The notes below the pieces were generated by a model, which did no database searches, had not been told where the DNA came from, and saw only the letters and a list, made by a program, of their open reading frames with translations. A stretch of 39,481 bases of DNA from Scytonema tolypothrichoides VB-61278 (GTDB lineage Bacteria > Cyanobacteriota > Cyanobacteriia > Cyanobacteriales > Nostocaceae). The stretch spans positions 237,762-277,242 of the forward strand of contig NZ_JXCA02000024.1 of NCBI RefSeq assembly GCF_000828085.3, given 5' to 3'. The position numbers and the translations under genes are program-made. Shown here one piece after another: positions 25,485 through 34,966 of the stretch (the first letter of the stretch is position 1; the number at the start of each line of letters is the position of its first letter).

Positions 25485-27797
25485 TTACTGTTCCCTGTTC
25501 CCTGTTCCCTGTTCCCTGTTCCCTATTCTCAAGACAGGAGTTAAATGTTCAGCAATCCCATCCAATTGAATAACATTACATCCCAACTTATAAGCAAACT
25601 CAACAGATTCCCCTGCACATAGCGCATTGTAAAAGCCTGTTGCAAATTTAATTGCAGCTTTATCGCCAATCGCTTTGTTCATACCAATCACATAGGGGAT
25701 GTGAGTGGCGATCGCACTCGCTTGAACTTCCGAGTAACAAGCGTTGAGGACAACACACTCAATGTCACTGGCAAACAACTTGAACAGTTCAGCCAGTGCA
25801 ACGGTATCTACTAACCGCACGTTCCCGGCTTCATCTTCTAGTACTAAACCATCATCTCCTGAACCGTGACCGCTAAAGTGAACGAGTTGCGGTTTAAAAT
25901 CGAGTAGTGCTTGGTAAACATCTTGAGTACGCACAGCCCACCGTTGTTCTAGATTAAACTGTTCACGTTTTTTAGCTTGTCGTAATCCCGCGTCAATTTC
26001 TCGAATTTCTTCGTTTAACCGTAAAGACGATGTGTTTTTTGGGTTAGATGCCAGAACCAGGATTGTTTTAACAGGGGTGTTAGTTTTTGGGGTAGAATCA
26101 GTTGAGGAGTGGTCACTGAACGTAGTGTTTCCTTGGTTCTGATAAGTTTGAGCATAAAAACTGGGGCGTTGCAGTGCCGTTTCTACCATATTTTCTAAAC
26201 TATGAATTCTGCTATCTTTTTCTGCTAACAATAATTTAATATCTCGTTCTGGTAAGCTTTTGATTTGATTATAAGTTTCAAAATATTCAGCACTGAGTTC
26301 CGACTTATTCGCTGTAGGTGCAGTTTTTGCTCTGATTAAAAACTTATCTTCACCTCGCACCTCCATCCCCACAATTCGCAGTTCTGCCTCTGGATGTTTC
26401 TCCGCTAACTCTTTGAATGAAATCGCAATAGCTCGCGGATCAACACCTTGGTTATGATAAAGGTCGAGGGTGTCAACAATGGGTTTGATAAAATCACCAA
26501 ATTCCCCATCTCCAAAAACCTCTTCTCTGTTATCCGGTTTACGCAGAGGATCAGGATCTTCTTTTGTGGGCTGTCGCATATAAACGTATTCGCACCGCAC
26601 TCCATCAAATTTTGTATCGCTGGTAATCCCCCAATCTTTGATGTATGCACCAGTAAGAGTCGCGCCTGTAAAATCAGTTCCGTCTAACTGTGCTTGTATT
26701 AACTTTGCTCTGGATAAATCCGCATCTTGTAAATTAGCTTTGCTCAAGTCTGTGCCAATAAAGCTGGCATCTACTAAGTTTACTCCTGTAAAGTTGACCC
26801 CTCGCAGGTCGTCACGGTCAAAAATCTTATCTTTTCCAAATCCAGTAACAAGTACCATCAGCACCTGTACTTTCTGAAGGTAAGTTCTCCCAGGACGAGC
26901 AAATTCAAGTTTTTTAGTTTTGCGGAAACACGTACGAGTCAAATTAGCTTTTCTAAAATCTGTACTTTTGAGCGTCGCTGCTGTCAAGTTAGCATCAGTT
27001 AAGTCGGCTTTGCGAAAACTTGTACCGCCAAAAGCGGCAAAAGCAACAGCGATGTTCCGAATCAAAACCTGCTTTTCATCTCCCTTGATTGCTCGCCAAC
27101 CAATATAGATGTTAAGTAACGTTACCGCTACGGCGAAGGCTCCGGCTACGGCTCCGGCTACGGCTACGGGGAAGGCTACGGCTACGCCTAGGGCGAAGGC
27201 TACGGCTCCGGCGAAGGCTACGGCTCCGGCTACGGTTCCGGCTACGGCTCCGGCGAAGGCTACGGCTCCGGCTACGCCTAGGGCGAAGGCTACGGCTCCG
27301 GCGAAGGCTACGGCTACGGCTCCGGCGAAGGCTACGGCTCCGGCGAAGGCTACGGCTACGGCTCCGGCTACGACTCCGGCGAAGGCTACGGCTCCGGCTC
27401 CGGCTACGGCTACGGCGAAGCCCGCTTGTATTCCTTGGCGAATTGTGACGATAAAGAATATAACAATTAAAATTATAGCACCCCAGCCCGCGATTTGATA
27501 ACTTATTTGCTGTAAATGGTTCTTACTTAAGCCAAATAGTAGGAGCACCACATAAGCGCCAGCAAAACTTGATAAAAATCCTGATATTCCCGACAGCAAC
27601 CACGAAACAACAACCAGGAAAATAGCCCAACGGTTTTGCAGTCCCGCTTTGGCATGACTGAAGTTAGCACCTGTGAGGTTGGCACCGCTAAAATCAGCGC
27701 TTCGGATATCTGCACCGCTAAAGTTCGCCCCCTCAAGGTTTTGATTTTTAAACGATCGCCCTCTAAGATTTTGCCCTGAGAAATCTTGTGATGGCAT
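25485..27797 (-). CDS. Membrane protein with pentapeptide repeats and a C-terminal CHAT (caspase-like) protease domain
   Basis: 770 residues. Order: pentapeptide repeats (~5-50), membrane helices (~57-120), a 100-residue Ala/Val/Gly/Phe segment (126-225) encoded by hexanucleotide repeats, a second run of pentapeptide repeats (~255-385), an effector-associated-type linker (~430-590), and a CHAT domain (PF12770, ~593-755). The catalytic dyad is present: H644 in VHFSGHGSGDDG and C687 in VVLNACYSE. CHAT proteases are relatives of caspase and separase and include bacterial cell-death and defence proteases such as Craspase/TPR-CHAT; cyanobacterial pentapeptide-CHAT proteins have no proven role. The last 12 residues come from a heptamer repeat. 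Start ATG is at 27795-27797. Confidence 0.9.
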   Translation of the reverse strand: MPSQDFSGQNLRGRSFKNQNLEGANFSGADIRSADFSGANLTGANFSHAKAGLQNRWAIFLVVVSWLLSGISGFLSSFAGAYVVLLLFGLSKNHLQQISYQIAGWGAIILIVIFFIVTIRQGIQAGFAVAVAGAGAVAFAGVVAGAVAVAFAGAVAFAGAVAVAFAGAVAFALGVAGAVAFAGAVAGTVAGAVAFAGAVAFALGVAVAFPVAVAGAVAGAFAVAVTLLNIYIGWRAIKGDEKQVLIRNIAVAFAAFGGTSFRKADLTDANLTAATLKSTDFRKANLTRTCFRKTKKLEFARPGRTYLQKVQVLMVLVTGFGKDKIFDRDDLRGVNFTGVNLVDASFIGTDLSKANLQDADLSRAKLIQAQLDGTDFTGATLTGAYIKDWGITSDTKFDGVRCEYVYMRQPTKEDPDPLRKPDNREEVFGDGEFGDFIKPIVDTLDLYHNQGVDPRAIAISFKELAEKHPEAELRIVGMEVRGEDKFLIRAKTAPTANKSELSAEYFETYNQIKSLPERDIKLLLAEKDSRIHSLENMVETALQRPSFYAQTYQNQGNTTFSDHSSTDSTPKTNTPVKTILVLASNPKNTSSLRLNEEIREIDAGLRQAKKREQFNLEQRWAVRTQDVYQALLDFKPQLVHFSGHGSGDDGLVLEDEAGNVRLVDTVALAELFKLFASDIECVVLNACYSEVQASAIATHIPYVIGMNKAIGDKAAIKFATGFYNALCAGESVEFAYKLGCNVIQLDGIAEHLTPVLRIGNREQGTGNREQ
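25488..25525. repeat. TTCCCTG heptamer tandem repeat inside the CHAT gene 3' end
   Basis: About five heptamers of CTGTTCC phase. Read on the minus strand, they encode the last residues [12 protein letters not shown] of the CHAT protein and lead into its stop codon. Confidence 0.9.
27123..27422 (-). repeat. Hexanucleotide repeat encoding the hydrophobic segment of the CHAT protein
   Basis: Some 50 hexamers, nearly all GCC followed by GTA, GGA or TTC on the minus strand, encode Ala-Val, Ala-Gly and Ala-Phe pairs (residues 126-225). The order of units is irregular, with a few variants (GCCCTAGGC giving ALG, one Thr, one Pro). Confidence 0.95.
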
Positions 27798-27962: not shown

Positions 27963-28033
27963 GTTGATTGCCAAGCGCGTTAAGCTAGCTGCGCCTCCGG
28001 CGATCGCCTCACCAAAAGCTTGGGTCTGAAGCC

Positions 28034-28050
28034 TCGCCCTAGAAGGGCGA
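28034..28050. other. Hairpin at the left end of the TnpB element
   Basis: TCGCCCT / AGGGCGA, a 7-bp stem with loop AGA, contains the stop codon of the RHH gene. It is followed on + by CTTTTTATTT. A matching structure (29656-29676) contains the TnpB stop at the other end. The arrangement resembles subterminal hairpins of IS200/IS605-type elements. Confidence 0.5.
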
Positions 28051-28182
28051 CTTTTTATTTATTCTCAGTTTCCTGATCAACTCCCTAAGTACGTCAGATT
28101 TTGTTCTTCCTACTGCTTGGCAATATTCTTCTAGATGTGCCAATTCCTCTTCTGTCAGTCGAAAAAATACACTTTTATTCAT
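28039..28182 (-). CDS. Small ribbon-helix-helix protein divergent from tnpB
   Basis: 47 residues: MNKSVFFRLTEEELAHLEEY, then CQAVGRTKSDVLRELIRKLR and INKKSPF. The short N-terminal beta-strand (SVFFRLT) followed by two helices (EELAHLEEYCQAVG and TKSDVLRELIRKL) is the MetJ/Arc/CopG fold of DNA-binding dimers. Such genes commonly lie head-to-head with cyanobacterial IS1341-type tnpB, and may repress it; that role is inference. The start region overlaps the beginning of the artefactual duplication at 28172. Confidence 0.75.
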   Translation of the reverse strand: MNKSVFFRLTEEELAHLEEYCQAVGRTKSDVLRELIRKLRINKKSPF

Positions 28183-28525
28183 GGCATTTGTATATCTATA
28201 TGATATACAATAATAGCAGAGTCAAAGGAAAGATTAGTGAAAGCCAGATATCAGTATCGTTTTTACCCAACAACACAACAACAACAGAATTTAGCTCGGT
28301 TGTTTGGTTGTGTTCGTGTGGTATGGAACCTGTCTCTTATACACATCTAGATGTGTATAAGAGACAGCTTTTATTCATGGCATTTGTATATCTATATGAT
28401 ATACAATAATAGCAGAGTCAAAGGAAAGATTAGTGAAAGCCAGATATCAGTATCGTTTTTACCCAACAACACAACAACAACAGAATTTAGCTCGGTTGTT
28501 TGGTTGTGTTCGTGTGGTATGGAAC
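28172..28525. other. Artefactual duplication around two Tn5/Nextera mosaic ends
   Basis: Positions 28330-28348 read CTGTCTCTTATACACATCT, the 19-base Tn5 mosaic end used in Nextera libraries, followed at 28349-28367 by its exact reverse complement. On both sides lies the same 158-base sequence (28172-28329 and 28368-28525), spanning the RHH/tnpB promoter region and the first tnpB codons. This is a chimeric read or assembly error, not a natural insertion. Removing 196 bases restores one copy. Translating across the junction gives the well-known contaminant peptide SYTHLDVYKRQ. Confidence 0.97.
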
Positions 28526-29677
28526 GATGCACTGGCTATCTGCAAGCAATCTGAAAAGCTGCCAAAGAATAGCGAATTGCAAAAGCTTGTAATTACGCGA
28601 GCCAAAAAGACTGTTGAGCGGGAATGGTTGTCAGATGTCTCTACCACTCCATTACAGCAGTCTGTTGCTGATTTAGGTATTGCCTATAAAAACTTTTTTG
28701 ATTCAATTAAAGGTAAACGCAAAGGTGGTAAAGTAGGCACTCCAAGATTTAAAAAGAAAACAAGTAAACAGTCTGCAAGGTTTACGCTCAATAGTTTCTC
28801 AATGAAAGGTGAGGAGGTATATTTAGCTAAAATTGGTAATGTAAAACCAATTTGGTCTAGGAAATTACCTTCTGTACCTACTTCAGTCACAGTAATGAAG
28901 GACTGTGCTAATCGCTATTTTCTTAGTTTTGTTGTAGAGATAGAACCTACTCAAATTGATGCCCTTACGGGTTCGCCAGTCACCTGCGGAGGGAAACCCT
29001 CCCGCAGTGCTGGACTCACTAAAAACCAAAGTATCGGTATTGACCTAGGACTTAAGACTTTTGCAGTGATGAGTAATGGGGAAAAAGCAACAAGCCCTAA
29101 TTATTCCAAGAAAGACCGCAAAATCCGCAAACTACAACGTAAGCTAGCAAGACAGCAATCGTGTTCTAAACGTCGTGAAGTCACTCGCTTAAGGATTGCC
29201 AAACAACACAGCAAAAAAGCGGACACTCGCAAAGATTTCCTGCACAAGTTATCAACCAAGGTGGTGCGCGAAAACCAAACTATTGTTTTGGAAGATTTGA
29301 ACGTGTCAGGGATGGTCAAAAATCGTAAGCTAGCAAGAGCTATCAGCTTGCAAGGATGGCGAGAATTTCGGGTACTGTGTGAGGCTAAGTCTGAAAAACT
29401 TAATCGGGAATTTAGAGTAATTAACAGATGGGAACCTACCAGCCAGACTTGCTCTTGCTGCGGGTTCCGATGGGGCAAAGTTGATCTTTCTGTCCGTTCA
29501 GTGCTGTGTTTAAACTGTGGCACTGCACACGACAGAGACGAGAATGCATCTAAAAATATAGAAATGGTCGGGATGGGGCATCGCCACGACCTTAAACGGA
29601 CAGGGAGCGACTGTAAGACCATTTCGGTGGCGCGTTGCCGTGAACTGTCAAGAATCACCGACCCTTTAGGGCGGTGA
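28433..29677 (+). CDS. tnpB: TnpB RNA-guided nuclease of an IS200/IS605 (IS1341-type) element
   Basis: 414 residues from GTG 28433, with AAGGAAAG upstream. N-terminal domain MKARYQYRFYPTTQQQQNLA; RuvC motifs D204 (GIDLGLKTFAV), E287 (IVLEDLNVSGM) and D369 (HDRDENASKNI); zinc-ribbon cysteines C340, C343, C359 and C362. All catalytic residues are intact, so it may be an active RNA-guided nuclease. No tnpA transposase is present; only a divergent RHH gene accompanies it. Residues ~177-196 (DALTGSPVTCGGKPSRSAGL) just before RuvC-I are encoded by an inserted palindromic repeat. A false 5' copy of the first 33 codons starts at 28237 because of the duplication artefact. Confidence 0.93.
   Translation: MKARYQYRFYPTTQQQQNLARLFGCVRVVWNDALAICKQSEKLPKNSELQKLVITRAKKTVEREWLSDVSTTPLQQSVADLGIAYKNFFDSIKGKRKGGKVGTPRFKKKTSKQSARFTLNSFSMKGEEVYLAKIGNVKPIWSRKLPSVPTSVTVMKDCANRYFLSFVVEIEPTQIDALTGSPVTCGGKPSRSAGLTKNQSIGIDLGLKTFAVMSNGEKATSPNYSKKDRKIRKLQRKLARQQSCSKRREVTRLRIAKQHSKKADTRKDFLHKLSTKVVRENQTIVLEDLNVSGMVKNRKLARAISLQGWREFRVLCEAKSEKLNREFRVINRWEPTSQTCSCCGFRWGKVDLSVRSVLCLNCGTAHDRDENASKNIEMVGMGHRHDLKRTGSDCKTISVARCRELSRITDPLGR
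28962..29020 (+). repeat. Palindromic repeat inserted in frame in tnpB
   Basis: A GC-rich hairpin (CTGCGGAGGG, loop AAA, CCCTCCCGCAG at 28984-29007) with flanks CGCCAGT / GTGCTGG interrupts tnpB ahead of RuvC-I. It keeps the reading frame and adds about 20 residues. Similar GGTTCCCTCC and GAGCCACTGCGGTGCGG modules occur at 34190-34330. Confidence 0.7.
29656..29676 (+). other. Right-end hairpin of the TnpB element
   Basis: CACCG-A-CCCT / AGGG-CGGTG with a TT loop and a bulged A. It covers the last codons and most of the stop of tnpB. In IS200/IS605 elements, the guide (omega/re) RNA is made from this 3' region, with the guide lying just beyond the element's right end; that is expected around 29677-29710 but not proven here. 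Confidence 0.5.
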
Positions 29678-34120: not shown

Positions 34121-34179
34121 TCAAAAATAAGGTTAAATATCTAGGCAATCAAGGTTAAAAAATGGTTATTGATAAAAAG
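34121..34179. repeat. Direct repeat, copy 1 (with copy 2 at 34432-34491)
   Basis: Both copies contain GGTTAAATATCTAGGCAAT, then (C/T)AAGGTTAAAAAATGG and TTATT(G/C)ATAAAAAG, differing at about four positions over 59-60 bases. They enclose a ~250-base GC-rich insert. Confidence 0.9.
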
Positions 34180-34333: not shown

Positions 34334-34966
34334 CTGCCACTAAAACCCGAATATATTATGCAGGATCTGATTAGCAGTACCCACCCTACACTGCTCAAGA
34401 TTTTTCTACTATTTCAGACTGCATTATGTTATCAAAATATAAGGTTAAATATCTAGGCAATTAAGGTTAAAAAATGGTTATTCATAAAAAGTCTAAAACT
34501 GTTAACCTCATTGTCTGAAATAGGCAAAACCTTTCTCAAAGCTTTTTGAATCCACACTTCATAATTTCTAGGAGTTCAAAAGCCAGAAAAGCTAATAAAT
34601 ACTTAATAAGTTTGGCATTGACTAGGTGTTGTCAATCGAATTATTGTGAGTATCAAGTCATCCAATTCGAGATGAATGAGATTACTTAATGATAAGTTAA
34701 TAAATCCTTAATATGGTTATAAGTCTTAGCAAGAATAATAAATATTTCTAGAGATTGATGCTTATTTTTCTGATTTCGCTTTCAGTTATATTTTGAAGTC
34801 CGCGCTCAAGAAAATTTTTAAAACTGGGAGCAAAGCGTATTCAACCGTTATCAGTTATCAGTTATCAGTGATTAGCTCAAGAAAGCTGCTTCTGCTTGAT
34901 AACTGTTCACTGTTTACTGTTCACTGATTCCCTTCCACATAACAATTTTCACCAAACCTTAATTTT

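What the first reader, a model, noticed from the sequence alone, without database searches (positions are those of the whole stretch)
28172..28525. Nextera/Tn5 mosaic-end chimera inside the TnpB locus
Two 19-base Tn5 mosaic ends lie head-to-head (28330-28367) between two equal 158-base copies of the same sequence. This cannot be a natural duplication: the 38-base core is a library reagent, and its translation yields the database contaminant peptide SYTHLDVYKRQ. It doubles the RHH/tnpB control region and creates a false ORF at 28101-28409. Any promoter, copy-number or TnpB 5'-end analysis here would be misled.
Basis: partly seen in the sequence, partly recalled or inferred. Interest (0 to 1): 0.85.

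Follow-up and report, generated by a model that had tools for sequence, protein, structure and literature searches.

The report
Mate-pair sequencing adapter left in assembly
A 38-base piece of a DNA-sequencing kit, together with a false 158-base duplicate of the neighbouring gene start, was left in this genome assembly; it is an ordinary laboratory artefact and should be masked, not interpreted as biology.

Summary
Two 19-base Tn5 mosaic ends lie head to head at 28330-28367, between two identical 158-base copies (28172-28329, 28368-28525). The 38-mer is the junction formed when a mate-pair library fragment is circularised. The geometry (fragment end, junction, start of the same fragment) is that of a 158-base fragment closed on itself, walked once too often by the assembler. 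The same assembly holds 13 full junctions and 3 truncated ones; 2 of the 13, this one included, have an exact abutting duplication of at least 20 bases. Fragment ends at the junctions carry the weak Tn5 insertion preference. The 38-mer occurs in 18 other assemblies of several phyla, in a capped scan. A same-genus relative has one uninterrupted RHH-tnpB region where the window is doubled. tnpB (28433-29677) is intact; only the doubled stretch and the ORFs through the adapter are false. No reads were available. Interest is low.

The parts
28330..28367 (.). 38-base mate-pair junction adapter: two 19-base Tn5 mosaic ends head to head (synthetic, not genomic)
   Evidence: identity of the 38-mer:
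28172..28329 (.). copy 1 of the 158-base fragment: first 11 bases of the RHH gene, 54-base intergenic region, first 93 bases of tnpB
28368..28525 (.). copy 2 of the same fragment, identical over 158 bases; one of the two copies is false
   Evidence: single copy in the same-genus relative L159:
28101..28409 (+). false ORF running through the adapter (102 aa, SYTHLDVYKRQ)
   Evidence: no Pfam match up to E 1:
28351..28554 (+). second false ORF, starting inside the adapter (67 aa, MCIRDS...)
28433..29677 (+). genuine intact tnpB (414 aa; OrfB_IS605, Cas12f1-like_TNB, HTH_OrfB_IS605)
28039..28182 (-). small gene of the RHH_1 (CopG) family, 47 aa, divergent from tnpB
   Evidence: 44 of the 47 residues were given to Pfam

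Best explanation
This is a sequencing and assembly artefact. In a Nextera-type mate-pair library, Tn5 transposase cut the natural locus at two points 158 bases apart and put a 19-base mosaic end on each end. The fragment was closed into a 196-base circle, joining the two mosaic ends into the 38-base junction. Reads across that junction were not clipped before assembly or gap filling, and the assembler walked the loop (fragment, junction, same fragment) one extra time. Shown: the sequence, the adapter's identity, the exact abutting duplication, recurrence in the same assembly and in others, and a single-copy relative. Inferred: that the library was Nextera mate-pair, and the assembler's path, since no reads or methods were available.
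For: Exact 38-mer and perfect 158-base abutting repeat. The 38-mer is printed as the biotin-labelled ring adapter of a circularised ~4 kb library in PMC7357533 (passage); NextClip (PMC3928519, part 1 of 2 read) describes two 19-bp adaptors joined by circularisation, 38 bases as a pair. Same assembly: 29 exact mosaic ends, 0 for the pattern read backwards, forming 13 full junctions and 3 truncated ones with 10-13 of 19 bases on one side. Exact abutting duplication of at least 12 bases at 3 of 13 own junctions (17, 149, 158) and 15 of 135 in other assemblies, against 0 of 2008 random positions in the loci of the other assemblies. The 26 own fragment ends match the Tn5 preference at 3.58 of 7 scored positions on average, against 2.55 in 224 control 9-mers (p 8e-5); 259 usable ends of 270 elsewhere 3.67 against 2.55 in 2288 controls; this site's two ends score 5 and 5. 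Same-genus relative L159 covers the region once.
Against: No reads and no library record were available. By exact match of at least 6 bases, 9 of 13 own junctions and 115 of 135 others have no abutting duplication, so the small-circle geometry is a minority outcome; 40 of the 135 others share a 20-mer between their flanks without abutting and 71 share none. What those junctions join was not worked out. The Tn5 preference is weak and ends within one assembly are not fully independent. L159 is a relative at about 75-79% DNA identity, not the same strain, and whether it is the orthologous site was not tested. No E. coli complete-genome record (0 of 20,395) matches the 38-mer.
Confidence: 0.98

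Rival explanations
1. A real Tn5-derived insertion in the cultured strain (laboratory transposon mutagenesis, or a remnant with its cargo lost).
For: The mosaic end is a working Tn5 end (PMC3046479 passages).
Against: Nothing lies between the two ends; the flanking duplication is 158 bases, not the 9 bases of a Tn5 insertion (9 is recalled); 16 sites in one assembly, 3 of them truncated; the same 38-mer in 18 other assemblies.
Confidence: 0.01
2. A natural 158-base tandem duplication of the RHH-tnpB control region with a natural palindrome between the copies.
For: The copies are perfect direct repeats; regulatory duplications exist in nature (general knowledge).
Against: The repeat boundaries coincide exactly with the adapter core; the mosaic end is a derived, hyperactive sequence (PMC3046479 passages); of 13 selected related tnpB loci, 0 have a repeated 25-mer in the 300 bases around the start and 0 hold a 12-mer of the mosaic end; the same-genus relative aligns through the region in one copy.
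Confidence: 0.005
3. The same 38-mer came from a ligated ring adapter on ultrasonically sheared DNA (as in PMC7357533) rather than from tagmentation. Still a library artefact.
For: That protocol uses the identical 38-mer.
Against: Fragment ends at the junctions of this assembly carry a Tn5-like preference.
Confidence: 0.01

Closest known systems
Nextera mate-pair junction adapter left in assemblies
   Same: Exact 38-base sequence, head-to-head orientation, flanks that are the two ends of one fragment; recurs in the same assembly and in 18 others
   Different: Here the fragment was only 158 bases, so the artefact also duplicates sequence; 15 of 135 junctions in other assemblies show an exact abutting duplication of at least 20 bases, 17 of 135 when up to 2% mismatch is allowed

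Membership tests
Nextera mate-pair junction artefact | two 19-base mosaic ends joined head to head, 38 bases, no other adapter sequence | tested here: met
Nextera mate-pair junction artefact | left flank is a fragment's end and right flank the same fragment's start | tested here: met
   158-base exact abutting duplication
Nextera mate-pair junction artefact | fragment ends show Tn5 insertion preference | tested here: met
   weak signal, pooled over junctions; the two ends here score 5 and 5 of 7
Nextera mate-pair junction artefact | recurs elsewhere in the same assembly | tested here: met
   16 sites including this one
Nextera mate-pair junction artefact | absent from the source DNA | not testable with these tools
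   needs raw reads, long reads or PCR; the single-copy relative L159 is indirect support
Tn5 / IS50 insertion | 9-base target duplication (recalled) around an element with cargo | tested here: not met
   158-base duplication, 0 bases between the ends

The most novel reading that the evidence does not exclude
The strain carries a genuine in vivo duplication of the RHH-tnpB control region that was later marked by the adapter. Nothing in the data favours it; it is only not strictly excluded without reads.
Probability: 0.005. Interest if true: 0.3.

Novelty: not a real feature. Interest (0 to 1): 0.05.

Why it matters
It matters only for data quality. The 5' control region of tnpB and of the divergent RHH gene is falsely doubled, two false ORFs could enter protein databases, and the assembly has 15 further adapter sites that should be masked or re-assembled before promoter, repeat or gene-start analysis.

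Tried and rejected
Real Tn5 insertion and natural duplication were considered and rejected (see rivals). The contaminant-peptide claim could not be documented: 0 papers hold the string SYTHLDVYKRQ. A search for papers on Nextera adapter contamination in deposited assemblies gave a listing of 12 of 28 loosely matching papers, none opened. A search for cyanobacterial small dispersed repeats listed 10 of 79 papers, none of the 10 holding the phrase 'small dispersed repeat', none opened; that the window's organism is a cyanobacterium is a guess, and the organism was not identified. Rfam at gathering thresholds found nothing in the window. E. coli complete genomes have no match to the 38-mer. In one search the RHH query was empty because of a frame error of mine; it was redone.

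Full report
Observation. No other mosaic end with up to 3 mismatches occurs in the window, and none of 100 shuffles gave two. A scan of the whole window for direct repeats of 40 bases or more (seed 20) found this pair and two other families, a degenerate 12/18-base array at 27094-27458 and a 57-base pair at 34123 and 34435.

Identity of the 38-mer. PMC3046479 (passages) states that the mosaic end is a 19-bp hyperactive derivative of the wild-type Tn5 ends, and prints the complement of the sequence seen here. NextClip (PMC3928519, part 1 of 2 read) describes how tagmentation puts a 19-bp adaptor on each fragment end and circularisation joins two of them, 38 bases as a pair. PMC7357533 (passage) prints the exact 38-mer as a biotin-labelled ring adapter for circularised fragments. 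Skewer (PMC4074385, passages) and PMC6298255 (passages) describe the Nextera mate-pair design.

Geometry. A circle made from one fragment reads: fragment end, junction, start of the same fragment. Here the 158 bases before the junction equal the 158 bases after it. An exact abutting duplication of at least 12 bases was found at 3 of 13 full junctions of this assembly (17, 149 and 158 bases), at 15 of 135 junctions of other assemblies, and at 0 of 2008 random positions in the loci of those other assemblies. With up to 2% mismatch and longer flanks, 17 of 135 elsewhere had at least 20 bases. The majority of junctions show no such duplication: 9 of 13 own and 115 of 135 others lack even 6 bases, of the 135 others, 71 share no 20-mer between the flanks, 40 share one without abutting and 2 share one in inverted orientation only. 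What these join was not worked out.

Same assembly. The genome (7.89 Mb, 31 contigs) has 29 exact mosaic ends, 14 forward and 15 reverse, and none for the pattern read backwards. They form 13 full 38-base junctions and 3 sites with one full end and 10, 12 or 13 of the 19 bases of the other, 16 sites in all, 7 of them on contig C14. Six of the 16 have 50 or more N in the fetched locus of about 3 kb, but only 2 of the 13 full junctions have more than one N within 300 bases; there is none around the site in the window.

Tn5 signature. The first 9 bases inward from each junction were scored against GNTYWRANC, 7 scored positions, the core of the preference quoted in PMC3046479. Own assembly: 26 ends, mean 3.58, against 2.55 in 224 control 9-mers 20-100 bases away, one-sided Mann-Whitney p 8e-5. 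Other assemblies: 259 usable ends of 270, mean 3.67 against 2.55 in 2288 controls. Ends within one assembly are not fully independent. The two ends at this site score 5 and 5.

Other genomes. Plasmids: 5 of 72,556 records. E. coli complete genomes: none of 20,395 records.

Natural state of the locus. tnpB (28433-29677, 414 aa) matches OrfB_IS605, Cas12f1-like_TNB and HTH_OrfB_IS605 above cut-off, and the divergent 47-aa gene at 28039-28182 matches RHH_1 above cut-off (44 of its 47 residues were given). I took 13 tnpB loci from the matches (30 of 40 genomes matched; one of the 13 lies in the window's own genome, and G010, G024 and G037 give two each). Of these 13, 0 have a repeated 25-mer in the 300 bases around the start, 0 have a 12-mer of the mosaic end, and 2 (L159, L162) have a recognisable divergent RHH gene. 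L159, from the same genus, aligns to window 28029-28316 and to 28367-28963 by overlapping stretches of one continuous sequence, at 79% and 75% identity: what is doubled in the window is single there. In the window's own genome the region 28050-28329 has no further close copy, only a 79% match over 91 bases on C6.

Consequences. tnpB is intact from the second copy. The truncated first tnpB start, the ORFs 28101-28409 and 28351-28554 and the second RHH start (MNKSCLLYTSRCV) are products of the adapter.

Noticed in passing
window 28964-29020: A 57-base dispersed repeat with a predicted hairpin sits in frame inside tnpB, adding 19 residues shortly before the segment GIDLGLKTF; the 7 related tnpB genes compared by blastn (of 13 fetched) all lack it. 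At least 40 related copies lie elsewhere in the same genome, and short matches to it occur in at least 13 relatives of the truncated list. It looks natural, unlike the adapter.
   Followed up: partly
window 28039-28182 with 28433-29677: A tiny divergent RHH (CopG-family) gene faces tnpB; it is 89% identical beside tnpB in the same-genus relative L159 and 36% in L162, and no convincing match was found beside the other 11 of 13 tnpB loci compared. It may regulate tnpB (inference).
   Followed up: partly
G000 C4:638322, C6:225142, C6:310754, C6:435509, C7:455022, C8:398055, C13:70268, C14 (7 sites), C18:1247: Fifteen other adapter sites in the same assembly, 7 of them on contig C14; 6 of the 15 have 50 or more N in the fetched locus of about 3 kb.
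   Followed up: partly
window 27094-27458: Degenerate 12/18-base repeat array inside the 770-aa ORF 25485-27797 (-), which codes there an Ala/Val/Gly/Phe-rich stretch.
   Followed up: no
window 34123-34179 and 34435-34491: Two 57-base direct repeats, 95% alike, 312 bases apart.
   Followed up: no
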